Origin: Flavobacterium sp. KACC 22763 | Lineage (GTDB): Bacteria > Bacteroidota > Bacteroidia > Flavobacteriales > Flavobacteriaceae | Length of the DNA: 64,000 nt | NCBI RefSeq assembly: GCF_028736155.1 | Contig: NZ_CP117879.1 | Span: 2,790,001 to 2,854,000 of the forward strand | Direction: 5' to 3' | Shown here: positions 49,683 to 64,000 of the stretch, piece after piece | Numbering within the stretch: the first letter of the stretch is position 1 | Layout of the letters: each line of letters begins with the position of its first letter | Position numbers and translations under genes: made by a program | The notes under the pieces: generated by a model | What the model was told of the DNA's origin: nothing | Database searches by the model: none | What the model saw: the letters and a program-made list of their open reading frames with translations, nothing else

Positions 49683-50228
49683 CTAGTTTTTTAGACACCA
49701 ATGCAAAATCTTAGCGATGTTTTTAGCATCGTCAATTCCGCGGTGATGTGTTCCTTCTAACGGAATATTCAGCAATGCAAGCGCGCCGTTCATTCCGGTT
49801 GGTTTGACCAGGCCAAACTTTTCGGCAAAATGCTCTTTTACATTGATATGCTCCTCTCCCATCGGATACGGAATTCCAAACGATTTACATTGTTTTTTCA
49901 GCATATTCAAATCGTACTGCCCGTAACTTGCCCAAGTATATAAATCTGGATTGTATTCGTCCTTTAGCAAATCAATAGCTTCTTCAAAACTTACTCCATT
50001 TTTGTCAAGCAAATCTTGTGTAATAGTCGTCAGTTCAGTACAAAACGGACTGACATTAGAACGCTGGGGTTTAATTAAAATTCCTTTGTTTTTTGAAATT
50101 TCCCCAGTTTCGGTATCTAAGACCGCCAATCCGATTTCAATAATTTCATTTTGCTGTCCGCTCGGGACTGCGCCTTGCCAACATGTGGCTTCTAAATCGA
50201 TAATAATTATTTTATCTGTTGTTTTCAT
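49683..50228 (-). CDS. ERI1/KapD-like 3'-5' exonuclease
   Basis: The 181-residue DEDDh exonuclease has motif I in IIIDLEATCW (Asp and Glu near residue 11), motif II in YTWASYGQYDLNML near 97, and motif III in HHRGIDDAKNIAKIL near 158-172 (His and Asp). The Cys after the first acidic pair and the IIEIG motif put it with the ERI1/3'hExo/KapD group, which tends to work on RNA. It starts 35 bases after the slipin gene and reads the same way, so the two are probably one operon downstream of the tRNA-like RNA region. Confidence 0.85.
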   Translation of the reverse strand: MKTTDKIIIIDLEATCWQGAVPSGQQNEIIEIGLAVLDTETGEISKNKGILIKPQRSNVSPFCTELTTITQDLLDKNGVSFEEAIDLLKDEYNPDLYTWASYGQYDLNMLKKQCKSFGIPYPMGEEHINVKEHFAEKFGLVKPTGMNGALALLNIPLEGTHHRGIDDAKNIAKILHWCLKN

Positions 50229-50263
50229 TTTTTTAAATTTTATAATTCTCTTATAAAGAGATT

Positions 50264-51361
50264 TTATTTCACGAAGATTTCCTTCAATTGACCAATTACG
50301 TTTCCGCCACCAGAAATGGTTATTTCACCAATCTTGTCTGCGATTTTTTCAACGTACTCCATCTCTTTCAACTTCCACAACATTTCGTTTTCCTCCATCA
50401 GCTTAGCTGTGTTTAGCAAACTTCTTGTTGCAGCCGTTTCTTCTCTTCTCATGATGCTGTTGGCCTGTGCTTTTTTCTCAGCAACCAAAACCTGATTCAT
50501 AATCTCTTTCATATCTCCTGGAAGAATTACATCTCTAATTCCAGCGTCTGAAGTTTTTAAACCTAAGTTTTCGATTTTTGAAGCCACTTCTGCTAAAATT
50601 TCCTCAGCAATAGCATCTTTTTTGTTTAACAATTCATCCAAGGTCAAACCTCCAATAAAAGCTCTCAAAGCCAATTGCATTGCTACATACAGCTGCTTTT
50701 CAAAGTCCTTGTTTTCTATCAAAGCTTTCATAATATCAACCACTTGGTATCTCACAAAGAAATTGATTCTTAATCCTGCTTTATCTTTAGTCAACAATTC
50801 CTGACCAGAAATTTCTAATTGCTGCTGTCTTGTATCAACAGTTTTCACTTCGATTGTAATGACGTTATTCCAGAAATAATGTGTCCCAGATTTCAATTCT
50901 TTCACAAAAGTTCCATTCACAAATAACAAAGCTTTGTCATTGCTTGCCACAATGAATTTTCTTGTGAAGTATCTCATCTTAACATTTTCCAATAAGTTTA
51001 CTGGAATATTTTCTGTGATTTCAATCTTAGACAAATCTGCTTTAATGAATTCATTTTTTACAACTCCTTTCCAAAAAGCATATTTCCCTGGCGTTAAAAC
51101 TTCTTTGAAATTTCCTTTTACAAATTGTAATACAATTTCGTTATCGGCAACCTCAACAACTTCCAAAAGAGATGCCAATACTTCATTTTGCAATAAAATA
51201 TCCAACTCAAAAGGAGCCTGAAAAGATCCGTTTAGATCGTAAATCATAATGTTTTTGTTTCCAAAAATCCAGTGTAATCCTTCTTTTAATACTTTTTCTA
51301 ATTTTCTATTTTCGAACACCAAGCCTACTTGGTAAGTTTCGATTTTAATTCTTTTTATCAT
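50264..51361 (-). CDS. Slipin family (SPFH/band 7) protein
   Basis: The 365-residue protein lacks a signal or membrane helix. Residues 1-140 form two short beta modules (VGLVFENRKLEKVLKEGLHWI and ALLFVNGTFVKELKSGTHYFW are copies of the same pattern). An SPFH core runs about 150-280 (VDTRQQQLEISGQELLTKDKAGLRINFFVRYQV), followed by a helical tail (AEKKAQANSIMRREETAATRSLLNTAKLMEENEMLWKL) likely to oligomerise. Such soluble slipins are found in RNA-repair loci with RtcB or Ro60 (established in other bacteria), but neither gene is in this window. It is preceded by the tRNA-like region and followed by the exonuclease gene. Confidence 0.88.
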   Translation of the reverse strand: MIKRIKIETYQVGLVFENRKLEKVLKEGLHWIFGNKNIMIYDLNGSFQAPFELDILLQNEVLASLLEVVEVADNEIVLQFVKGNFKEVLTPGKYAFWKGVVKNEFIKADLSKIEITENIPVNLLENVKMRYFTRKFIVASNDKALLFVNGTFVKELKSGTHYFWNNVITIEVKTVDTRQQQLEISGQELLTKDKAGLRINFFVRYQVVDIMKALIENKDFEKQLYVAMQLALRAFIGGLTLDELLNKKDAIAEEILAEVASKIENLGLKTSDAGIRDVILPGDMKEIMNQVLVAEKKAQANSIMRREETAATRSLLNTAKLMEENEMLWKLKEMEYVEKIADKIGEITISGGGNVIGQLKEIFVK

Positions 51362-51599
51362 AATATTTTTTTTGTTTAAAGTTTAAAGTTTCATGTTCAA
51401 AAATCTTTAAAACCTCTATACTCTATTCTCTTTTTTCTATTTTCTTCTTAATAAAAAAACCTCTTTGCCTTTCTCCTCTAAGAAAAACGGACGAATAGTT
51501 TGTTATTTGTCTACCTGAATTGTTTCTGATTCTATTTTATTGAGAGAATCCCCAAATTCTCTTAACAATCAAATCAAAAAGAAAACAAACTTTTCAAAA

Positions 51600-51777
51600 C
51601 ACATTGCGATTCGCACTGGCTTTATCAGAGTGTGAAGCATCAGATTCTAAAATCCTAGTTTCACTGACAAAGACAAATCAGTTTTTTCTAATGGTCATCT
51701 TTTTAAGAGTGATGGTCTCTACTGTTTACAGATTTTCAGTCTGTTGACTTACCGGATTCGTCCAACCGAAACGTGTT
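51600..51777 (-). ncRNA. Degenerate tRNA-like fragments downstream of the D/T-arm RNA
   Basis: On the minus strand the stem ACAGA/TCTGT with loop CTGAAAA (51,728-51,744) is an intact anticodon arm reading GAA (Phe). A 6-bp hairpin ACCGAA/TTCGGT (51,765-51,780) precedes it. Further on, around 51,600-51,660, are partial arms such as CACTCTGATAAAGCCAGTG. No complete cloverleaf forms. I annotate it as one transcribed non-coding region with low certainty of exact ends. Confidence 0.45.
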
Positions 51778-51834
51778 CGGTGCAGGATTCGAACCTGCAT
51801 AAACATTCTATTACTCTAACCAACTGAGTTACCG
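51778..51834 (-). ncRNA. tRNA-like RNA with D and T arms but no anticodon arm
   Basis: On the minus strand a 4-bp acceptor-like stem CGGT/ACCG encloses a perfect D arm (ACTC-AGTTGGTTA-GAGT, 51,813-51,829) and a perfect T arm (TGCAGG-TTCGAAT-CCTGCA, 51,781-51,799). The 13 bases between them (51,800-51,812) can form at most a 3-bp stem, so no anticodon arm exists. This is the architecture of the tRNA-like module of bacterial Y RNAs (YrlA), which imitates tRNA without being a translational tRNA. It lies between the lysine-rich protein gene and the slipin gene, all reading leftward. Confidence 0.65.
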
Positions 51835-51838
51835 CATT

Positions 51839-51880
51839 ACTACGGATGGGAATCGAACCCACGACAAATAGATCGTGTGA
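51839..51880 (-). ncRNA. Second tRNA T-arm/acceptor fragment
   Basis: On the minus strand GTGGG-TTCGATT-CCCAT (complement of 51,846-51,862) is a canonical T arm with a CCGTAGT acceptor-like tail (51,839-51,845). A competing hairpin CACGA/TCGTG (51,860-51,877) overlaps the T stem. No D arm is seen upstream. It ends 4 bases before the D/T-arm RNA, so the two may be halves of one larger structure. Confidence 0.5.
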
Positions 51881-52148
51881 TAATTTTTTGGAAAACCACC
51901 AAAACCTCCAAATCAAGTTGCATAGAAAAACATAATTCGCTTTCGCGGAAAGTTCTCTACAATGGTGCTATACAGAAACACGCAACTGGACTTGTTTGAT
52001 ATTTTTAACCAAAGCCGAAACTTTGATACATTTCATTTTATAAAAGAACTTGTTTTATTTCTTGAACAAATATTCAAATCGAACTGCGCAATTATTTTGC
52101 GTAGAAAATAAAAAACTAAATTCGGGTAGATTTGCATTACTCGGTGAT
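51881..52148. other. Leader region upstream of the tRNA-like RNAs
   Basis: About 270 bases between the tRNA-like elements and the stop of the lysine-rich gene. It holds a short hairpin near 51,937-51,950 (TTCGC...GCGGAA) and one near 52,086-52,101 (CGCAATTATTTTGCG). I see no reading frame and no consensus promoter that would start the RNA. Further left, 51,362-51,599 is an AT-rich slipin leader with nothing recognised. Confidence 0.4.
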
Positions 52149-52168
52149 AGACGCACTGCTGTGCGTCT
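52149..52168. repeat. AGACGCAC palindrome, third copy
   Basis: AGACGCACTGCTGTGCGTCT differs by one base from the two copies at 25,558-25,577 and 25,603-25,622. It lies 20 bases after the lysine-rich gene's stop codon and could serve as its terminator. Confidence 0.75.
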
Positions 52169-52188
52169 CTACCGAATATCTCTTGTTT

Positions 52189-52692
52189 TTAGAAGAACAT
52201 GCTTTTAAAATCTAGAAAGAAACTTCTTTTCTTAGACTTTTTTTCATGCTTCTCCTTTTTAGCAGATTTCTTTTTTTCAAAAACTGCTTTAGCTTTCTCA
52301 ATCCGTTTAACTGGTTTTATTTCTTCAGTTTTAGACATTTCGTAGAACTTTTTAAAAGGACGTGGTTCAAAATCTACCAAAATAGCTGCCATGTTTATAG
52401 CATCAATGTTTGACGGATCTGTTTCTCCCTTGAAGAAAGTTTCGATAGGTCTGAACTTATCTTTTTTCTCCTTAAACTTATTCTTTTTGCTATGATCGAA
52501 ATCTAAGCCCAATAGGTTGCTGAAAACGTTCAAGTCATCCTTTGTTGGGTTGTTTTCGAAAATTAGCCAGCACAAATCACGAAGTTTTCCACGAGAAGGC
52601 TTGTACAAATAATCAAAGTATTTGCCTTCTTTTTCTATTTCGTATTTTTTTCTAATTGCTTTTTTATATTGTTGTAATGTATTGTTTTGCAT
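52189..52692 (-). CDS. Lysine-rich protein of unknown function
   Basis: The 167-residue protein is very basic. It has a compact helical core (about 15-120: KYFDYLYKPSRGKLRDLCW, LNVFSNLLGLDF, FRPIETFFKGETDPSNIDAIN, ILVDFEPRPFKKFYEM) and a disordered C-terminal tail (about 125-160) built almost wholly of Lys, Glu and Ala. The tail ends in an aromatic patch FFLDFKSMFF. No family I can name fits. A basic tail next to tRNA-like RNA makes RNA binding possible, but this is inference. It starts 110 bases after a 52-codon reading frame on the same strand. Confidence 0.7.
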   Translation of the reverse strand: MQNNTLQQYKKAIRKKYEIEKEGKYFDYLYKPSRGKLRDLCWLIFENNPTKDDLNVFSNLLGLDFDHSKKNKFKEKKDKFRPIETFFKGETDPSNIDAINMAAILVDFEPRPFKKFYEMSKTEEIKPVKRIEKAKAVFEKKKSAKKEKHEKKSKKRSFFLDFKSMFF

Positions 52693-52801: not shown

Positions 52802-52960
52802 CTAAATGATATATATAATTTCCTTAAAACGCACCTTTTCTTTCCATAGGTTAATCAGTTCCAAATCTTTCTTTTTAATTGAGGCAAATGACGGTTCACT
52901 TGACTCCAGTTTGTCTGTTTGACCACTATGGCCCGACGCAAATCCTATTTCTTGATTCAT
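52802..52960 (-). CDS. Candidate 52-residue small protein
   Basis: The frame starts with ATG preceded by TTTAAGG and encodes 52 residues: a polar Ser/Gly-rich half (MNQEIGFASGHSGQ) and a Lys-rich helical half (SIKKKDLELINLWKEKVRF) ending hydrophobic (EIIYII). It lies upstream of the lysine-rich gene on the same strand, and the composition is protein-like. No promoter was identified: the upstream 52,961-53,076 is repeat-like (TTAGGAGCTTAACATCTTAG words). No family is recognised. Confidence 0.4.
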   Translation of the reverse strand: MNQEIGFASGHSGQTDKLESSEPSFASIKKKDLELINLWKEKVRFKEIIYII

Positions 52961-53265: not shown

Positions 53266-53298
53266 TTTTCTGAAACGCTTTGTTTCAATTTTGTTCGG

Positions 53299-53331
53299 CA
53301 AAGATATGATGGAAAAAATCATATTTCCAAA
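53299..53331 (-). promoter_or_regulatory. Consensus promoter of small unit 1
   Basis: On the minus strand TTTG (53,331-53,328) and TATCTTTG (53,306-53,299) are 21 bases apart, an excellent match to the Bacteroidetes major promoter. Confidence 0.8.
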
Positions 53332-53622
53332 TATTTTTAAGAATAATTTTCTGATTATCAGTTAGTTAAACTAAAAATAAAGACAAAGAAATTCCTGTCC
53401 GCAAACTAGTGCAGATCTTCATTTTGTATCAAATGACTGTTACTCATTAGATTACTTTCCAAGACTATATCTTTCTATTTTTATTAATCATTAAACATTT
53501 TGGCTAAATATTTTTTTAGTTTTTTTAGTTCTGGTTTGTTTTTCTATCATTTTCTTGTCATGTTGAGCGAAGTCGAAACATCTTTTTTAATATCATCAGC
53601 AAATTCAAATTACTCTAAAAGC
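53332..53622. other. Spacer between the two small units
   Basis: About 290 AT-rich bases with no reading frame or structure I can support. It contains TTGAGCGAAGTCGAAAC (about 53,563-53,579), related to the repeat near 460. Confidence 0.4.
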
Positions 53623-53950: not shown

Positions 53951-56900
53951 TTATGCATACGTCTTATCAATCTGACTCAAAATAGTTGGATCTTGAATTT
54001 CATTGTCTTTAGCAAACAATAAAACTTTAGACATAACCTCAGCCGATTTCGGATCGTCATCTGCAAATGGAAGGAATAAACGCCCTCTGTGTTGCGAATG
54101 AATTGGCAATATCGATAAATATTTACCTGGCATCTGATGCACAACCGCACTTCCTAAATGAACGCTGTATTCTGCCAATTGTCCTTTTATGATGGCATGG
54201 TTTCCTGTAATTTCTACATTCTTCACTTTGAACAAACGCAACGTTTCCCTTAACAATACGGCTCTCATTTCGATAGAAGAATGACTTGCTTCTGGATCTA
54301 CGCCGCCAACATGGGCAACGCTTACCACCAAATCAATATCGCGCATTACTTCTGAAAAAATCCTTGGATTGATATCTTCAAAAGCAATGTTTTTATAATC
54401 TTTTAATGAATGGAATTCGATCGTTTCTAAAGTCGGACTCTCAACATCTGCTGGAGAAAACCAATCTGCCATTGCATACATTTTTACCTGATATCCTTCT
54501 TTATGGAAAACTTTCTGCAATCCTTCTTCGTAATCTACTTTCCAGCCTCTTGTTTTCAATAAAGCCAAAGTTTGATTCGGCTGAACTTGATGCCCTGCAT
54601 AACGTCTTGAAACCGATTTCTCTTTCAATTCACCCGGCGTTGGAACATACAATTCTCTAAAAATCTGTTTAAAAGGTTGCTGTAATTTATTATCAAAACA
54701 ATATTTCTGGTAATCTGTCCAAACATTATTTTTATGCAAATCGAAACAGTGTGCAATTCTAAAAGTCTGCTTTTCGTTTAACGAAATCATTTCTCCTAAA
54801 CCGGTAACTAAACTTCCATCGACATAAAAACCAATCTGATTGTCATTAGAAATAAAGACCAATTTCTCTAGATGTTTTGAAATAATTGGATGCTCGAAAA
54901 GATTTTGCATTTCTGCGAATAAAAACTCATCACCACGAATCATACTTTCTTCCAAGCCTTTTCTTGAACGAGTCCATTGCTCTCGCATGGTTTTTCGGTA
55001 ATTCGTCAGTTCTAGAATACCTTTGTCTTTTTTGTATTTCGGCGGAATCGATTTTAATTCCTTTCCTGCTTTATACGTAACCAAATCAGCTTTTCCTTCA
55101 TTATTGATCACCAAACTTATGGTTACATCTTCTAAAACCACTTCGGTTTCTTTTGATAAAATATTCTGAACTTGTTTGGTTTCCATTGCCCAAGTCAAAC
55201 GAACAGGATCTGGATAACCCGCATTTCTTGCCAAATTTTCCAATGCCACACGAATCGCCAAAGCTTCGCTCGCCTGTTTCATCGAGCCAAACTCTTTGCT
55301 TTCTTTTTTAAACTGCTGTAAATATTCGTAACGCGCCAAAATATCTTTTTCTGGACTTGCTTTACTTAAAGGCACCAACCCATAAACTCTTAAATAATCT
55401 TGGTCACGTTTATCTTTTACTTTGGCAGTAACTTCTCTAATTTTTAGATCTCCTGTAATCGTATCAGCGTACAATCTGGCACGTCTGTGACCATTTCCGT
55501 CTGTTACGTATTTCGCAGATTCGTATAAAAGTTCCCATTTGGCTTTTCCTAATTTTTTGTAAGCCGATATAAACCAATCTTTATCTACAGCACCATCTTT
55601 AAAATCTTGCAAATCTAAAGTCGAAAATCTCGCCGCTTCACTTTCTAATTCTGAATTTGTAGCACTGTAAGAAGCCGTTTTGGTGTGCGCATGAAACCAC
55701 CAAATTCCTTCATCCAGACCATTCCAATCCAAATAACTGCTGATAAACTTTTGCCATTGAGGCGCATAAATAGCAGTCTGAATCAGTCTCTCTTCAGAGA
55801 TTTTAGCTTTTTTAATTAAAGCATTAAAACTTTCCTGCGTATCAGTTTCTAACGGATAACATCTTTTCAACAAGAAACTAAATAATTTCTGTTTCGTTAA
55901 ATCAGTATAGCTCCACGAATAAATATAACCTTTGTACAAACTTGCTTTTCCAAGCGCTGTAATCAATTCGACTAAGCGGTTTGCTCCAAAAATCTTCTGG
56001 AAACTCTGAACCAGATGTGTAACCGTAGTATTAGAATCTCCTCTCTTAACCTCAACATCCAAAAACGTCTCTCTGATTTTATCAATCATCGGAACTAAGA
56101 ATGGAAACTTTTTAATTAAATCTTCGCTTCCAAAATGTCTGTAATGTTTCTTCTCGCTGGTTAAAACAGAAATTCTTTCTGGTTCTAAAATTCCCTCGTA
56201 CAATTCACCTTCGGTAATTATTTTTTGCTCAAACGCAACGCAATACAAATGAATTGGCGGTTTGGCAAAAGATCTGTTTTTTTCTAAACCGTTTAATTGT
56301 CTCCATCTATATAGATTCCAGACTTTAGCATTTTGTTCTTCTGTTAAATCAAGTAAACCAATTTTGTTCAGATAAATATCAAAAAATCCTTGACTCTGCC
56401 AGCCATTTCCGTTGTTGTTATTGTAATAATACTCATCTTTAGCAGGCTTATACTCAAATTCTATTACAGATTCCGGAAGATCGGCATATAATGCACTACA
56501 AGCGTCGATTAAGAAATCAGCCTTTTCATTAAAAACATATTTAATCTGCAATGCATTCAGAATATTCAAAATTGCATTGTCCCAATCGTAACCTCTTTTA
56601 TTTTGGTGAGGCAGCAGCTCTTTATAATAAAAAACATGCTTTTCTAGAAAATCTCTCCATATTTTTCGATCGCAATTGCTTACTAGCGTCATTAAAAACA
56701 AATCTCTATTGGCAAGACCTGATTTGGTAAACCATTCTTCCCAAACTTCATACAACGGATAATTAGTCGCTGCCAATTCGGAATTCTTTTCGTCTTTTAG
56801 ATTTTTTAATGGTCTAAAAGAGTTTCCTAATAAAACAGTCGATTTGCTATTATCGTAATTTTCAGTTTCGTATTCGTAATTTCTGTTTTCTTCAAACAAT

Positions 56901-59023
56901 TTATAAAGCTTCGCAATTTCGTCTTTAATATGCGACATCGATTTGGAGAAACCATACTGATGTTCTTTTACCGCTTTTGCATACAAAGAATCTGCTCCTA
57001 CTTTAGGAAGTTCATAAGCAGAAATTTCGTTTGGCGTAAAAAATCCGTAACCGTTTTCTGCGCTTAAAAGGTCTTGTTTTTTTGAAGGTTCTAACTGCTC
57101 AATAAATTTGGTTTCTTTCTCGGTAATTTTTGGTCTTTGCAGATAATCTTTTACCCAATCATTAACCTTATCTGTCAGTTTATTGTTTTTCTGAAGCTGA
57201 AGCATTACGTCCAGCATAGACATACGCTGTTCTAAATCTCCTTTTTCTATGGTCTGATTAACAAAATTGACTACTTTCTGATCTTCTTGTTTGATTAGAA
57301 TTGCTGTTAGATTCTTTTTTAAATTAGAATTTTTACGTTTAAATAATTCCTGAAAAACAGCTAATTCATCTTCGGTTAAACTCAAATTTTTTAAAACACA
57401 AATCGCCGAAGCTACAAGAGATTCGCCTCTATCTTTTAAAATACGCAAGGCAAAATTTCTTTGAAAGTCAGATGGCGTCTTCATTCCTTGCAGAGTATTT
57501 TCCTTTAAACTATAATACGAATAGTGATAAAAACTTCCCAATAAATTTCTCGTCAGTTTCTCTCTTAAGTTGATCGAGAAACCTTCAAAATGCTGTAAAA
57601 CCGCTTCCAATCTTTCGTTGTTATCGCCAACCAAATTAATCGCTGCGGCATAAAGCGTATCTCTTTCGAACTTTACATTTAACCACGAAAACACTTTCCC
57701 TTCAAAAGTTTTTTCTTTCTCAGTAATGCTTTGTGCAAGATTGTAAACTTTATCAAAAAAGTTCGGATAATCTGCATTTTCGATATAGAATTTCGATTTT
57801 GTATTGGCTTCCAACAAAGCATTCATTCTCGGAACTGCAAAGGCTAAAATCTGCAGATTCTCATCTTCTAAAGCTTTAAAATAAAGAGGCATTTCGATAT
57901 AAGGATCGTTGGTTTCTCCTGCAAATTTTAATGCCAACGATTTCTTTTCAGCCGAACCTTTTTCTAATAATTCATGTAGATACGGAACTGTTTTCTCGAC
58001 ATCCAAAACACCTTGAACCCAAAGCGCCATATAGACTTCGTTATTATTTTTGCTTTTTACGCCATTCGGAATCGTTTCTGGTTTGGTAAAATAACCCGAA
58101 GCCAACTCGATAATATTACGAACTGTAGTTTCTTTTTCAGAATCCCAGCCCAAACCTGTCCACGTATCGATGGCTCTTACAACCGATGAAAAACGAGTCA
58201 GTTTATTATCAATTAGCACTTTAATCATATATTGCAAAGCGCCAATGCTAGTTTCGTCTAAAGCCTCCAGAATCGTCTGGCGCAAACCTTCTTGACGCTG
58301 CGCCGCCAAAAGCAGTTTTTCTACCAACTCCCAATGCTGCTGTTTTTCGCTATTTAAAAGTGCTTTGATGATATTTCTAGACACTTTTCCGTGTGTGTCT
58401 TTATTGAAAATAATGTCTTCAAACAATTGAAAAAGTCCTTCTTTACCAGAATCCAACGCTGAAGACCAAACCATGAATTTATTAATAGAATTTGAAATCT
58501 CGGTATCGTAACGAATTTCATCTTCAATACTCAAATCATAATAAAAAGTACTGCTGTCCTGATAATTATATTTGTAAGGTCCGTTTAGCAAAGAACGCAG
58601 AAAATTGATCTGATTGACCAACAGATAACTTTTATGATTAGGCGCTCTAAAAGCTCTTCGTGTATACCCGTTCTGATACATTTTTTGCGGCAATCTGTTC
58701 CAAGCTTCTTTTACGAATGCGGCGGTTTCTTCTCCAAAAAAGTAAAGCAGCAAGTCGTAATAGTTTTTATCTTCCCAGATATTCTCTTTTACCAAAGCGG
58801 CAAACTTTTCGGCTTCTTTAGAACCAAGCGAAATATAATTGCTGTAATAATTGTCCTGAAGTTTCAAGAGTTCCAGACCAAACTCCGCCACTTCTTTTTT
58901 CAGTTTTTTTCCAGAAAGTAATTTAGAAAGCAGATTACTGTTTACAATTTCTTCCAGTTCTTTTTTAAATCTCTTAATTGGATTTTCGATTACTTTACTT
59001 TTTAAAAGATCTTCTATCGTCAT
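53951..59023 (-). CDS. Very large DUF4132 (YehI/MolR-like) protein
   Basis: The 1690-residue protein has no signal peptide or membrane segment. The N-terminal two thirds are helical and repeat-like, resembling HEAT-type solenoids (for example LHELLEKGSAEKKSLALKFAGE and LALKFAGETNDPYIEMPLYF near 345-380). The C-terminal part, about residues 1180-1420, carries the DUF4132 core: GHRRARLYADTITGDL, PVRLTWAMETKQV and KTMREQWTRSR. A closing alpha/beta domain (about 1500-1690) includes VVSVAHVGGVDPEASHSSIEMR. E. coli YehI and relatives are linked with MoxR-type ATPases and vWA proteins, none of which are seen here. Function unknown. Confidence 0.85.
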   Translation of the reverse strand: MTIEDLLKSKVIENPIKRFKKELEEIVNSNLLSKLLSGKKLKKEVAEFGLELLKLQDNYYSNYISLGSKEAEKFAALVKENIWEDKNYYDLLLYFFGEETAAFVKEAWNRLPQKMYQNGYTRRAFRAPNHKSYLLVNQINFLRSLLNGPYKYNYQDSSTFYYDLSIEDEIRYDTEISNSINKFMVWSSALDSGKEGLFQLFEDIIFNKDTHGKVSRNIIKALLNSEKQQHWELVEKLLLAAQRQEGLRQTILEALDETSIGALQYMIKVLIDNKLTRFSSVVRAIDTWTGLGWDSEKETTVRNIIELASGYFTKPETIPNGVKSKNNNEVYMALWVQGVLDVEKTVPYLHELLEKGSAEKKSLALKFAGETNDPYIEMPLYFKALEDENLQILAFAVPRMNALLEANTKSKFYIENADYPNFFDKVYNLAQSITEKEKTFEGKVFSWLNVKFERDTLYAAAINLVGDNNERLEAVLQHFEGFSINLREKLTRNLLGSFYHYSYYSLKENTLQGMKTPSDFQRNFALRILKDRGESLVASAICVLKNLSLTEDELAVFQELFKRKNSNLKKNLTAILIKQEDQKVVNFVNQTIEKGDLEQRMSMLDVMLQLQKNNKLTDKVNDWVKDYLQRPKITEKETKFIEQLEPSKKQDLLSAENGYGFFTPNEISAYELPKVGADSLYAKAVKEHQYGFSKSMSHIKDEIAKLYKLFEENRNYEYETENYDNSKSTVLLGNSFRPLKNLKDEKNSELAATNYPLYEVWEEWFTKSGLANRDLFLMTLVSNCDRKIWRDFLEKHVFYYKELLPHQNKRGYDWDNAILNILNALQIKYVFNEKADFLIDACSALYADLPESVIEFEYKPAKDEYYYNNNNGNGWQSQGFFDIYLNKIGLLDLTEEQNAKVWNLYRWRQLNGLEKNRSFAKPPIHLYCVAFEQKIITEGELYEGILEPERISVLTSEKKHYRHFGSEDLIKKFPFLVPMIDKIRETFLDVEVKRGDSNTTVTHLVQSFQKIFGANRLVELITALGKASLYKGYIYSWSYTDLTKQKLFSFLLKRCYPLETDTQESFNALIKKAKISEERLIQTAIYAPQWQKFISSYLDWNGLDEGIWWFHAHTKTASYSATNSELESEAARFSTLDLQDFKDGAVDKDWFISAYKKLGKAKWELLYESAKYVTDGNGHRRARLYADTITGDLKIREVTAKVKDKRDQDYLRVYGLVPLSKASPEKDILARYEYLQQFKKESKEFGSMKQASEALAIRVALENLARNAGYPDPVRLTWAMETKQVQNILSKETEVVLEDVTISLVINNEGKADLVTYKAGKELKSIPPKYKKDKGILELTNYRKTMREQWTRSRKGLEESMIRGDEFLFAEMQNLFEHPIISKHLEKLVFISNDNQIGFYVDGSLVTGLGEMISLNEKQTFRIAHCFDLHKNNVWTDYQKYCFDNKLQQPFKQIFRELYVPTPGELKEKSVSRRYAGHQVQPNQTLALLKTRGWKVDYEEGLQKVFHKEGYQVKMYAMADWFSPADVESPTLETIEFHSLKDYKNIAFEDINPRIFSEVMRDIDLVVSVAHVGGVDPEASHSSIEMRAVLLRETLRLFKVKNVEITGNHAIIKGQLAEYSVHLGSAVVHQMPGKYLSILPIHSQHRGRLFLPFADDDPKSAEVMSKVLLFAKDNEIQDPTILSQIDKTYA

Positions 59024-60387: not shown

Positions 60388-63300
60388 TTAAACTTCATAA
60401 AAAACATTCAATATTCCTTTAGCTTTACTTCTAGTAAATTTTGAAATGATACTGTACTCTTCTAAAATTTTAAGAAATCTTTCATTTTCTTCATTTAAAT
60501 CAAAAGATACTTTTACATCATTTACAATATCAACAAATTTATCTCCCATTTTTTCTAACAAATCACAAATATCATATTCATTATTTTCATCAGAAAAAGC
60601 TAAATTAAATAAACTAATTTTATAAGATTCTTCAAAATCAACTGCGATAAGTTTTTTAAATAATGTTGAACTTAAATTCAAAGATTTATTTTTTAAATAA
60701 AATTCAGCTATTTTTTGCAAAAATTCTAAATTTTCGCTTTTAATTATTTCTACTTCTTTTTCAATAATAATTTTATCTAAAGATTCAATACTTAATTCAG
60801 AATCAATCAATTGTTCCAAAAATTCAATATCAAAACTATAATTACCTAGCTCTGAAATAAAACTATCTTCATATGAGATAATTAATTTGACTAAAACATC
60901 TCTATTATTTTTAAATAATGAATCGAACTCTTCTACGTCAAGCACGAAAAAAACTCTTTCTTCCAAAAATGAAATTCTAGAATCTATATTTATTCGATTT
61001 GATTTTAAAACCAATTCTCCTGATTCCGCAAAGATTGCTTCAAAAGAATCCTGCGAAAGATTTTCATCGTTTATAAGTTCATAAATAAAATCGTCACATG
61101 AATTATTTTCACCAAATAAAACATCTTCTTTTTCATAAATACCTAATACTGATATTTTTGTATAGTTATCACTATCATTTAAGAAAGTAATCAAATCTGA
61201 ATCAATCAAACTTTCCCAACTATAATATTCTAAAATATTTTCCCAAGAAGAGAAAATTTTATTTCTCTGAATTAATAATGTTTGAATTTCTTTTACAGGA
61301 ATACTATCAAAAGAATTTAATTTGTCTGTAAATCCTTTTTGTATTATTTTTATTTTATTTTCTAAATCTAGTATTTTATCATTTTGCTCTAGCAAGTACA
61401 AAACATCATCAGCTTTTTCATTTACATTTTCTTCAATAGCTAAATAAACATTTTCTACATATTCTTTTAAATTTTTATTTATTCTTATATATAAATTTGA
61501 TGTTTCATTAGATTTTAAAAACCCAAAATTTGAATAAAAAAACTTGTTCGCATCATAATTATACTTTTTATCTATTTTAGAAAAAAGATTTAAATTATCA
61601 ATATTAATTTGATACAAATCGTGCTGGTAAACTTTTAATAATAAGTTTTTAATTTTTTCAGAATAAGTTATTGAAGTAAATTGAACCTGTAAAACCTGTA
61701 AAGTTTTTATAAGATGATCTGTATTTATTCTTTCAAATGCATCTTTAAGTAAATCCTTATCTAAACTAATAAAATTTGTTAATCCTTTATTTTTATTCAA
61801 CTTGATCAAAGTCCTATTGCCAATTTCATCTGAAAATAATTGAATTAAATCAAGCAGAATAATTCTTCTTAAATCTTCAGAAAATTTTGTTTCTACAAAA
61901 TGCCAGAATTTATCCCATTTAGTTATTTCAAAATAAAAATTAGTCAGAGTAACATTATCATTGCTTATTTTTTTTAAAAAACTTTCAATAAAGTAAACAC
62001 TTTCATCATGATAATTTTTTATCTGATCCAAAACAAAATCAAGTTTTTCATTTCTTAAATTAGGGTTTTGGCATTCTTTTAATAAAAATTGTAAAATGTC
62101 ATAAATTAATATAGATTTATTTTTAAATCTTATATCTCTTATGTTCTTTACCAAATTCTCTACATCTTCAATTTTCTCTTCAAAAGAGGTAGTTTCATTT
62201 TGGTTTATTTTCATCATCAATTTATGATCACTGGAAGATAGTGAACCTGGATGAAAGTATGAGACGTATTCTATAAAATCTTCATTTAAATAATCATTTT
62301 TGAATAGATATTTAAATAAACTAATGTTAGGATTTACTTTATTTTCAGTAAATTCTTTACCATCAACATTTCTATATATTTTAGATGAATAAACTAGTTC
62401 TAAAAAGTGATCAACTCCTTCATTATAATTTTCACATAATTCAAATAAACTTAAATTTTTAATATTTTGCTTTTCATTATTTAAAAAAAGAATTTTTCTT
62501 TCTAATAAAGCTATTTTATTTTCATGAAAATCATTAATCAGCTTTACCCTTTTATTATATGTTAATTCACTATCCATTTCATCTTCAACATCTTTAAAAG
62601 AAATACCTGAGTTGTGATTTCTAACATAATCATAACTGAACTTAATATTACGAGATTCCTTTATTTTTTCGAAATTTTCATCAGCAATCAGGTTATCACT
62701 CAACTTCATCCCCTCTATATCTATAATTTTTTGCAAATGTTTTTCTTCAATTAACACCATCAAATTAAAAATATAAATTTTTCTTAGCTCGTTTACATCT
62801 CTCAAAACTTGTTTACTCAATAATTTTTCCAATTCATTCTTTTCTTCAATTTTAGCTTTCAACTGATCGTCAATTTCCACAATAATTTTTTCCAAATCTT
62901 TGTCTTTTTTAAAATCTTTTTTAAAAATTCGATGCAGTTTCGATTCATTTTTTTGAATTCTCGCAAAATCATCTGGAAATATGTTTTTGTAAAATATAAT
63001 TGCAAAGAGCTTATTTTTATCAATACTAGGTTTATCAATAATTAAAATCTCATTGTACAATTTAAATTCATTACAAATATTGATAACTGTACGCATGTCA
63101 TACACGTAATTAGAAACTTCGGAAATGAAATTTTTATCTAAAAAACTTTTATTTTCTATGACAACCTCACTTTCATTCTTTTCCTTTTCAAAAAAGCTTT
63201 CTAATTTTAAAAGAAACATATTTTTTGAATTACTATAATCAGTAATTGGTATAACAGGAACAATTATATCAAAAAACTTTGTCTTATCTTCTAAAATTAA

Positions 63301-64000
63301 TTCATCTTTTACTGAATAAATAAACTTAACTGGCTGAATAACATCCTTAGACTGTTTAATTAAAATAGAAAGTTCTCTAATTTTAGAATATAATTTGATA
63401 GCTACATCATCACTAAATCTATCAATATCTTCAACAATAACAATATTCGTATTAGTTTTTTCAAAGAAGTAAATTATTTCATCGATGTTTCTATTAAAAA
63501 CAGAAAGATCTTTATCTGTTTTTTCATTAACTATTTCAAGAGTGTTAGGAGTTAATTTTGAGAGTTTTAAATTCTTTATTTTATCAAATGATTTATAAAA
63601 AATATAAAATACTCCAGTAATAAAAAATAATTGTATAAATTCTGTATTTGTGCTAATTCCTTTAAAGAGAATAAGCTTTTTATTAATCCCTTCAAAAAAT
63701 AAAAAAATTAAAGAATAGAACCACAATGTCAGTAAGCATATGAAAATTAATTTTCGAAAAGGCTTAGTAAAATCAATTCTTTTATATGAAGATTCTTTTA
63801 TTTTTATTTTTTTCTCATAATAAAGAATTTGCTGAACTATACTCGTTTCTATTAATTTTTCGTCCGATTTATCATCTTTAAAACTTGCTAGGGAAATATG
63901 TAAATATTCATTACCTCTATTTCTTTTACAAAATTCGTTAATGATTGTGCTTTTACCAGTTCCAAACCCACCAGTTAACGCAATATTTGTTACATTTTCA
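60388..64000 (-). CDS. YobI/KAP-type membrane-anchored P-loop NTPase, 5' end missing
   Basis: The frame stays open to the window edge (last full codon 63,997-63,999), so at least 1203 residues are present and the start lies outside. The first visible residues carry the Walker A motif TGGFGTGKSTII. Two membrane segments then interrupt the NTPase domain (about residues 84-104 and 120-138), as in KAP NTPases. Walker B is IVIVEDIDRFSDD, and KFIYSVKDELI and FDIIVPVIPITD follow. The remaining 900 residues are helical with coiled-coil stretches and no named domain. YobI-like NTPases are predicted to act in phage or mobile-element conflicts. Base composition is more AT-rich than in the neighbouring genes. 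Confidence 0.85.
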   Translation of the reverse strand, partial: ENVTNIALTGGFGTGKSTIINEFCKRNRGNEYLHISLASFKDDKSDEKLIETSIVQQILYYEKKIKIKESSYKRIDFTKPFRKLIFICLLTLWFYSLIFLFFEGINKKLILFKGISTNTEFIQLFFITGVFYIFYKSFDKIKNLKLSKLTPNTLEIVNEKTDKDLSVFNRNIDEIIYFFEKTNTNIVIVEDIDRFSDDVAIKLYSKIRELSILIKQSKDVIQPVKFIYSVKDELILEDKTKFFDIIVPVIPITDYSNSKNMFLLKLESFFEKEKNESEVVIENKSFLDKNFISEVSNYVYDMRTVINICNEFKLYNEILIIDKPSIDKNKLFAIIFYKNIFPDDFARIQKNESKLHRIFKKDFKKDKDLEKIIVEIDDQLKAKIEEKNELEKLLSKQVLRDVNELRKIYIFNLMVLIEEKHLQKIIDIEGMKLSDNLIADENFEKIKESRNIKFSYDYVRNHNSGISFKDVEDEMDSELTYNKRVKLINDFHENKIALLERKILFLNNEKQNIKNLSLFELCENYNEGVDHFLELVYSSKIYRNVDGKEFTENKVNPNISLFKYLFKNDYLNEDFIEYVSYFHPGSLSSSDHKLMMKINQNETTSFEEKIEDVENLVKNIRDIRFKNKSILIYDILQFLLKECQNPNLRNEKLDFVLDQIKNYHDESVYFIESFLKKISNDNVTLTNFYFEITKWDKFWHFVETKFSEDLRRIILLDLIQLFSDEIGNRTLIKLNKNKGLTNFISLDKDLLKDAFERINTDHLIKTLQVLQVQFTSITYSEKIKNLLLKVYQHDLYQINIDNLNLFSKIDKKYNYDANKFFYSNFGFLKSNETSNLYIRINKNLKEYVENVYLAIEENVNEKADDVLYLLEQNDKILDLENKIKIIQKGFTDKLNSFDSIPVKEIQTLLIQRNKIFSSWENILEYYSWESLIDSDLITFLNDSDNYTKISVLGIYEKEDVLFGENNSCDDFIYELINDENLSQDSFEAIFAESGELVLKSNRINIDSRISFLEERVFFVLDVEEFDSLFKNNRDVLVKLIISYEDSFISELGNYSFDIEFLEQLIDSELSIESLDKIIIEKEVEIIKSENLEFLQKIAEFYLKNKSLNLSSTLFKKLIAVDFEESYKISLFNLAFSDENNEYDICDLLEKMGDKFVDIVNDVKVSFDLNEENERFLKILEEYSIISKFTRSKAKGILNVFYEV

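What the first reader, a model, noticed from the sequence alone, without database searches (positions are those of the whole stretch)
49683..52692. Slipin, ERI1-like exonuclease and tRNA-like RNAs in one leftward locus
A soluble slipin gene and an RNA-type 3'-5' exonuclease gene are 35 bases apart and co-directional. Directly upstream is a non-coding region built of tRNA-like pieces, then a gene for a basic protein. Soluble slipins and tRNA-like Y RNAs are known parts of bacterial RNA-repair loci with Ro60/TROVE and RtcB, but neither enzyme is in this window. A trimming nuclease in place of a ligase would be a different design, perhaps an RNA-sensing or RNA-decay module.
Basis: partly seen in the sequence, partly recalled or inferred. 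Interest (0 to 1): 0.8.

Follow-up and report, generated by a model that had tools for sequence, protein, structure and literature searches.

The report
Slipin with a tRNA-mimic RNA

Summary
In detail: a soluble slipin gene and an ERI1-like exonuclease gene lie 35 bases apart, and a conserved, structured tRNA-like RNA lies upstream. The "different design" reading fails. RtcB, a Y RNA (YrlA) and Ro60/TROVE start 2-4.5 kb past the window's end on the same strand. The palindrome TRCGCAA-N5-TTGCGYA occurs exactly three times in the 5.56 Mb genome: before the slipin RNA, before YrlA and before TROVE.

The RNA has a conserved 5' domain, a circularly permuted tRNA-like module (T arm, acceptor hairpin, D arm), a second such module (D arm clear only in some relatives) and a tRNA-type anticodon arm. 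Its pairs covary well beyond controls. A model of the 5' domain hit 43 of 199 genus genomes, all with the slipin; 40 of 50 slipin genomes show no TROVE. So it is Ro60-independent, not a Y RNA.

The pair runs through Bacteroidota; elsewhere slipin relatives sit beside RtcB or RlaP. As I recall, Burroughs and Aravind (2016, not held) predicted SPFH/Band-7 proteins paired with a "novel tRNA-like molecule". So: member of a predicted, untested kind, most likely a scaffold RNP in tRNA repair or surveillance.

The parts
49683..50228 (-). ERI1-like DEDDh 3'-5' exonuclease gene (181 aa), downstream of slipin
   Evidence: RNase_T E 2e-19; ERI1 solved structures best E 2.7e-17; directly downstream in 18 of 50 genus loci
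50264..51361 (-). soluble slipin gene (365 aa): three tandem beta units, SPFH/Band-7 domain, C-terminal helices
   Evidence: Band_7 E 1.1e-30; predicted models; internal repeats; ortholog in 50 of 199 genus genomes
51527..51991 (-). conserved structured non-coding RNA region as aligned (the last ~45 nt at the slipin side are a tail added when the stretch was cut)
   Evidence: alignment A1; consensus structure and covariation
51874..51991 (-). 5' domain of the RNA (covariance model R1)
   Evidence: R1 hit E 1.3e-23; 44 hits in 43 of 199 genus genomes, all slipin genomes
51807..51870 (-). permuted tRNA-like module 1: closing stem, T arm, acceptor hairpin, D arm
   Evidence: YrlA model positions 23-87, 39.1 bits, below gathering; helices 7-10; acceptor hairpin covariation
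51763..51802 (-). module 2: second T arm and acceptor hairpin (no D arm in the consensus fold); limits approximate
   Evidence: helices 11-12; tRNA model 27.8 bits at 51777-51834
51728..51744 (-). tRNA-type anticodon arm, 5-bp stem and 7-nt loop
   Evidence: helix 13; such an arm in 90 of 104 distinct RNAs, 3.4% in shuffles
52085..52103 (.). palindromic putative operator TGCGCAA-TTATT-TTGCGTA
   Evidence: one of three strict matches in the whole genome; reversed-pattern control 0
52189..52692 (-). basic protein gene (167 aa), optional neighbour
   Evidence: net charge +16; no Pfam or NCBIfam match; within 6 kb of slipin in 9 of 50 genus loci

Best explanation
The locus is the slipin arm of a stress-induced RNA-repair regulon. 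SHOWN BY SEQUENCE: a soluble SPFH protein is encoded directly behind a structured RNA built on permuted tRNA modules; the two keep together across the phylum; in this genome a rare palindrome stands before this RNA, before the YrlA and before the TROVE gene, and RtcB follows the YrlA. INFERRED: a regulator (the adjacent WYL protein is the best candidate) opens these units when tRNAs are broken or translation is hit. The RNA, cut from or left within the slipin transcript, binds the slipin oligomer and forms an RNP in which the tRNA mimicry attracts tRNA-handling enzymes (modification, end-healing, RlaP, RtcB, in some genomes the ERI1-like exonuclease) so that broken tRNAs are trimmed, healed and religated, or destroyed. 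It works like Ro60 with its Y RNA, but with a slipin as protein partner.
For: Permuted module: 74 of 89 distinct acceptor hairpins fully paired against 4.3% in shuffles; 97.4% of cells paired against 88.1% shuffled and 40-46% slid. Obligate pairing: 43 genomes with the RNA model, all among the 50 slipin genomes. Regulon: three strict palindromes in 5.56 Mb, all at these genes; relaxed form upstream of slipin in 53 of 80 loci, 0.04 expected. 47 of 50 slipin genomes have an RtcB of some type. 64 of 67 genomes with the palindrome have a WYL ortholog. Compact gene order in some relatives: RtcB-slipin-RNA-(HD)-WYL. Outside the phylum: rtcR-slipin-RlaP in Citrobacter, slipin-RtcB in three other records. 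In Anabaena a slipin family gene rises with rtcB when the repressor TrcR is lost (PMC10272220, passages).
Against: No transcript, no binding and no phenotype is known here. The RNA lies in the 5' leader position of slipin, so a purely cis-acting role is open. The own sequence alone does not fold better than shuffles (z -0.95). 10 of 50 slipin genomes lack the strict palindrome. Two relaxed palindromes lie at genes with no known repair role. The genome-count tests ignore kinship. RtcB counts include a second, PrfH-linked-looking RtcB.
Confidence: 0.6

Rival explanations
1. Cis-acting leader: the tRNA-like structure is a sensor in the slipin mRNA. Anticodon nucleases, RNase P/Z, or tRNA-binding enzymes act on it, and the cut or the bound state sets slipin expression; the RNA has no life of its own.
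For: RNA always on the slipin side and strand, 439-639 nt from the start codon for its 5' domain; no R1 hit away from slipin; no terminator-like site on the minus strand between RNA and slipin, one on the plus strand.
Against: Very long and elaborate for a leader; in Salmonella the comparable YrlA lies in a polycistronic rsr-yrlBA-rtcBA operon yet is a separate RNA (PMC7790460, passages); spacing from the RNA's end to slipin varies (84-350 nt). The R1 search scored only 18 candidates a genome with strict filters, so orphan copies could be missed.
Confidence: 0.25
2. Decoy: the anticodon arm and tRNA-like modules soak up tRNA-cutting toxins or anticodon nucleases, with slipin as a holder that stabilises the bait.
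For: A canonical anticodon arm in 90 of 104 distinct RNAs with varying anticodons (CAA, UUU, GAA, GUA most often); extra tRNA genes near slipin in many relatives; a defence gene of the Tmn type in the same island. The idea that YrlA might inhibit the anticodon nuclease is raised in PMC7790460 (passage).
Against: The same paper reports no YrlA fragments and says it is not a substrate; no toxin partner is shown; the arm search imposes U33, a pyrimidine at 32 and a purine at 37.
Confidence: 0.15
3. Degenerate tRNA array: the pieces are decaying tRNA genes next to the slipin without function.
For: ARAGORN finds tRNA genes in 34 of 51 loci scanned; none of the pieces here reaches a gathering score.
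Against: Order T-acceptor-D is permuted and the hairpin covaries; the 5' domain is conserved and unlike tRNA; presence tracks slipin.
Confidence: 0.03

Closest known systems
SPFH/Band-7 module with a cognate novel tRNA-like RNA (Burroughs and Aravind, NAR 2016, 44:8525; recalled, paper not held)
   Same: Soluble SPFH protein, adjacent tRNA-like RNA, neighbourhood of RtcB, RlaP and RNA ligases
   Different: Cannot say whether the permuted module order, the Bacteroidota palindrome or the independence from Ro60 were noted there; the citation was seen only in the reference list of PMC6514570
rsr-yrlBA-rtcBA RNA-repair operon with Ro60 and Y RNA (PMC7790460)
   Same: RtcB, TROVE and a YrlA stand 2-4.5 kb past the window and share the palindrome with the slipin RNA
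   Different: A WYL gene rather than RtcR lies next to the operon; slipin RNA lacks the Ro60-stem part of the YrlA model; slipin occurs mostly in genomes without TROVE
YrlA, Rfam RF02553
   Same: T arm, acceptor hairpin, D arm in permuted order inside a closing stem
   Different: Only model positions 23-87 of 114 match; a second T arm and acceptor hairpin, an anticodon arm and a separate 5' domain are added
Anabaena TrcR regulon (rtcB, trn operon/L-array, slipin family gene alr0740; PMC10272220, PMC9938897, passages)
   Same: A slipin family gene is regulated together with rtcB and a tRNA array
   Different: Regulator is a ribbon-helix-helix protein; I did not test homology of alr0740 nor look for an RNA there
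Stomatin, prohibitin, HflK/C and other SPFH cages
   Different: No membrane anchor predicted; two extra N-terminal beta units

Membership tests
Bacterial Y RNA (YrlA) | permuted tRNA-like effector module | tested here: met
   YrlA model 23-87, 39.1 bits; helices 7-10. The feature list for Y RNAs is recalled
Bacterial Y RNA (YrlA) | stem of the two ends that binds Ro60 (outer parts of the Rfam model) | tested here: not met
   Model positions 1-22 and 88-114 unmatched here, while the RNA beside TROVE matches 1-114, though at 41.2 bits also below the gathering score
Bacterial Y RNA (YrlA) | occurs with Ro60/TROVE | tested here: not met
   10 of 50 slipin genomes have a TROVE match, 40 do not; in this genome TROVE is present with its own YrlA
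Burroughs-Aravind SPFH/Band-7 plus tRNA-like RNA | soluble SPFH gene with adjacent tRNA-like RNA | tested here: met
   definition recalled
Burroughs-Aravind SPFH/Band-7 plus tRNA-like RNA | RNA-repair neighbourhood (ligase, RlaP nucleotidyltransferase) | tested here: met
   RtcB in the same region; RlaP, Rnl2-type and RLIG1-type ligases in relatives' islands; RlaP beside slipin in E. coli and Citrobacter
Burroughs-Aravind SPFH/Band-7 plus tRNA-like RNA | the same RNA as described there | not testable with these tools
   paper not held
rtc operon (rsr-yrl-rtcBA) | RtcB, Ro60 and YrlA together on one strand | tested here: met
   for the neighbouring genes, not the window's own
rtc operon (rsr-yrl-rtcBA) | RtcR control and RtcA | not tested
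   a WYL/WCX gene lies next to the operon; RtcR and RtcA were not searched for
tRNA gene | canonical cloverleaf found by ARAGORN or Rfam gathering score | tested here: not met
   some distant copies do reach the tRNA gathering score
ERI1/DEDDh exonuclease | DEDDh domain, closest solved relatives ERI1 | tested here: met
   activity not testable here
Major vault protein | tandem beta repeats, SPFH shoulder, cap helix | tested here: inconclusive

The most novel reading that the evidence does not exclude
A bacterial miniature of the vault: the soluble slipin, built as three beta units, an SPFH domain and helices, closes into a cage or ring that houses a tRNA-mimic RNA. The same palindrome stands before a TROVE protein gene (eukaryotic vault TEP1 also has a TROVE domain, recalled) and before a second tRNA-mimic RNA. 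The cage would be a tRNA repair or sorting chamber. The architecture order is seen in a predicted model; the cage, its cargo and any kinship to vaults are untested, and the beta units alone resemble SPFH sub-domains more than vault repeats.
Probability: 0.1. Interest if true: 0.9.

Novelty: new member of a known kind. Interest (0 to 1): 0.55.

Why it matters
It turns a recalled, sequence-only prediction (slipin with a tRNA-like RNA) into testable parts: an RNA with a covariation-backed structure and ends, a candidate operator with three strict sites in one genome, a candidate regulator, and genomes where the pair acts without Ro60. The RNA matches no Rfam 15 family at gathering score here, so it is probably unannotated in many genomes. 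If the RNP reading holds, bacteria have two parallel protein-RNA scaffolds, Ro60-YrlA and slipin-RNA, for tRNA damage. The E. coli version (1,624 of 5,426 complete genomes) makes genetics feasible.

Tried and rejected

Led nowhere: sigma-70-type promoter scan (not suited to this phylum); PMC10434189 (passages, irrelevant); a wrong DOI of mine fetched an unrelated yeast paper; Pfam search of the genes at the two extra relaxed palindromes gave nothing for the two ORFs nearest the sites and a metallo-beta-lactamase fold for a neighbour.

Literature: seven searches answered; I saw listings, abstract starts and the passages named above, no whole paper. In these I saw no account of the palindrome or of this RNA's fold; most subscription papers are not held, so this is no proof of absence in print.

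Limits: genus counts rest on 199 genomes drawn from a larger genus, some fragmentary; several tests share these genomes and ignore kinship. Slipin matched 72 of 199 genomes; I counted 50 as orthologs (51 genes, two in G046; G098 split and G103 broken included) and dropped distant paralogs and remnants (G038, G056, G080 among the latter). I fetched 49 of the other 50 genes (G023 was left out) plus the remnant in G038. The palindrome list was cut: 78 sites copied by hand, of which 35 lie under 1 kb upstream of slipin, TROVE or RtcB, 22 within 10 kb, 12 far and 9 on contigs with none of these; for RtcB that comparison used a hand-copied part of the listed places. Palindrome-to-WYL distances used one hand-picked site per genome, 38 of 47 within 1.2 kb upstream. 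WYL orthologs: 79 of the 90 genomes matched, after dropping 11 whose only matches were at 42% identity or less.
Full report
WHAT IS THERE. On the minus strand the window holds a slipin gene (50264-51361) and, 35 bases downstream, an exonuclease gene (49683-50228). Slipin has one Band_7 domain (E 1.1e-30) and no membrane-type hydrophobic stretch. The exonuclease is a DEDDh enzyme closest among solved structures to ERI1 (E 2.7e-17). Upstream lies about 830 bases without a plausible gene and then a basic protein gene (52189-52692; net charge +16; no Pfam or NCBIfam match).

THE MISSING ENZYMES ARE NEXT DOOR. The window is bases 2790001-2854000 of a 5.56 Mb contig. RtcB lies at 2855918-2857360 and a TROVE protein at 2858339-2859856, both on the slipin's strand. 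Between them is a YrlA-like RNA (41.2 bits over the whole model 1-114, below the gathering score of 69).

ONE RARE PALINDROME. TRCGCAA-N5-TTGCGYA occurs three times in the genome and the reversed control pattern none: at window 52085-52103, about 94 bases before the 5' domain of the slipin RNA; about 70 bases before the YrlA; and about 68 bases before the TROVE gene (positions). A relaxed form (N7) adds two sites at genes with no known repair role. In the genus 67 of 199 genomes have the strict form (the reversed control rings in two genomes, G054 and G059); 63 of the 67 have slipin, TROVE or RtcB and 64 of 67 a WYL ortholog, while 15 WYL genomes lack the strict form. Upstream of slipin across the phylum the relaxed form is found in 53 of 80 loci, 0.04 expected from a simple shuffle; the strict core in 23. 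That the WYL protein binds it is inference.

THE RNA. The stretch before slipin aligns over about 400-480 bases in 22 genus members. RNAalifold gives 73 pairs. Counted on the alignment, 97.4% of cells pair against 88.1% when partners are shuffled and 40-46% when slid; 34 pairs have changes on both sides against 17.5 shuffled. The structure was derived from the same alignment, which favours it; the slid control and the separate test below do not share that weakness fully. Against this, the own sequence alone folds no better than shuffles (z -0.95). Parts, 5' to 3': a conserved 5' domain; a closing stem that holds T arm, acceptor hairpin and D arm in that permuted order, as in YrlA; a second T arm and acceptor hairpin, with a clear D arm in some relatives (sequences) but not in the consensus fold; an anticodon arm; a less well resolved 3' part. 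The acceptor hairpin was tested separately: 148 T-to-D modules in 104 loci, 89 distinct strand pairs, 74 fully complementary, against a mean of 4.3% and a maximum of 12.4% when strands are dealt out among modules. An anticodon arm with a 7-base loop is found after the second T arm in 90 of 104 distinct sequences against 3.4% in shuffles; U33, a pyrimidine at 32 and a purine at 37 were conditions of that search.

LINKAGE. A covariance model of the 5' domain gives 44 hits in 43 of 199 genus genomes; 43 of 44 lie 439-639 bases upstream of slipin on the same strand, the last on another contig of a slipin genome. All 43 are among the 50 slipin genomes; the seven not hit are G020, G022, G058, G076, G123, G158, G193, whose slipins are about 48-50% identical and whose loci still show T-loop motifs. 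The search scored 18 candidates per genome with strict filters, so orphan weak copies could be missed. By motif, a T-loop pair lies upstream of slipin in 46 of 50 genus loci and 74 of 80 wider loci from Flavobacteriia, Cytophagia-, Chitinophagia- and Bacteroidia-type organisms (names), against 45 of 3,015 random windows. TROVE is found in 18 of 199 genomes and in 10 of the 50 with slipin; an RtcB of any type in 86 of 199 and 47 of 50.

THE ISLAND. In relatives the genes around slipin change: RtcB-slipin-RNA-(HD)-WYL in compact form in L042, L043, L073, L080 and others, RlaP, RNA ligases, a metallophosphatase, MoxR-vWA-type bpX4 genes and tRNA genes in 34 of 51 loci scanned. The exonuclease lies within 6 kb on the same strand in 19 of 50 genus loci and 28 of 80 wider loci. 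Outside the phylum, slipin relatives of 34-43% identity stand in front of RtcB in Photobacterium, Burkholderia and Subdoligranulum records and in front of RlaP in Citrobacter (next to rtcR) and E. coli, with T-loop motifs or a tRNA-like match upstream. The E. coli form is in 1,624 of 5,426 complete genomes.

HOW IT MAY WORK. In Deinococcus, Ro60 is tethered by Y RNA to an exoribonuclease, and in Salmonella the rsr-yrlBA-rtcBA operon answers to broken tRNAs (PMC7790460, passages). In Anabaena loss of the repressor TrcR raises rtcB 77-fold and a slipin family gene 42-fold along with the tRNA array (PMC10272220, passages), and the same genes shifted together in another study whose authors suspect erythromycin (PMC9938897, passage). 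With the shared palindrome here, the likeliest reading is a slipin-RNA particle made together with Ro60-YrlA and RtcB, whose tRNA mimicry brings tRNA-handling enzymes to a scaffold. The step from co-regulation to a particle, and every biochemical step, is inference.

WHAT IS KNOWN. From memory, the abstract of Burroughs and Aravind 2016 names SPFH/Band-7 modules with a novel tRNA-like molecule as cognate RNA. I could not open it and saw only its citation. I therefore file the locus as a new member of a known, predicted kind. The palindrome, the permuted fold with counted covariation and the mostly TROVE-free distribution are what I can add; whether they are new in print I cannot say.

Noticed in passing
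60388-63999(-), continuing past the window: A large P-loop gene beside the RNA-repair genes: Pfam YobI-ATPase (E 1.5e-57) and PADLOC Tmn (E 2.6e-50), a candidate anti-phage defence gene inside the island.
   Followed up: partly
52811-52960(-): Remnant similar to the first 51 of 188 residues of a metallophosphatase gene that stands intact in relatives' slipin islands (49% identity, E 2e-9; Pfam Metallophos).
   Followed up: partly
53270-53462(-): Short remnant of another small ORF found in a relative's island (L041); function unknown.
   Followed up: no
53951-59023(-): 1690-aa protein with DUF5724, DUF4132 and DUF7737, present near slipin in 8 of the 52 loci mapped.
   Followed up: no
L037 6235-8330: Second RtcB of the genome followed by a release-factor-like ORF (GGQ motif seen by eye), like the known RtcB-PrfH pair (PMC6514570 passages).
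   Followed up: partly
L182 1501-1519 and L183 1501-1519 (C1:1198135, C1:1923331): Two further relaxed palindromes, upstream of a 311-aa and a 447-aa ORF without Pfam matches; possible extra members of the regulon.
   Followed up: partly
L081, L082, L083: Arrays of 7, 11 and 6 near-identical tRNA-Glu(TTC) genes 9-14 kb or so from the slipin gene or on the same stretch.
   Followed up: no
L177 6552-7001 and L176 6471-7001: In Citrobacter and E. coli a sigma-54-like promoter sequence (judged by eye) and a T-arm motif lie before the slipin-RlaP genes.
   Followed up: partly
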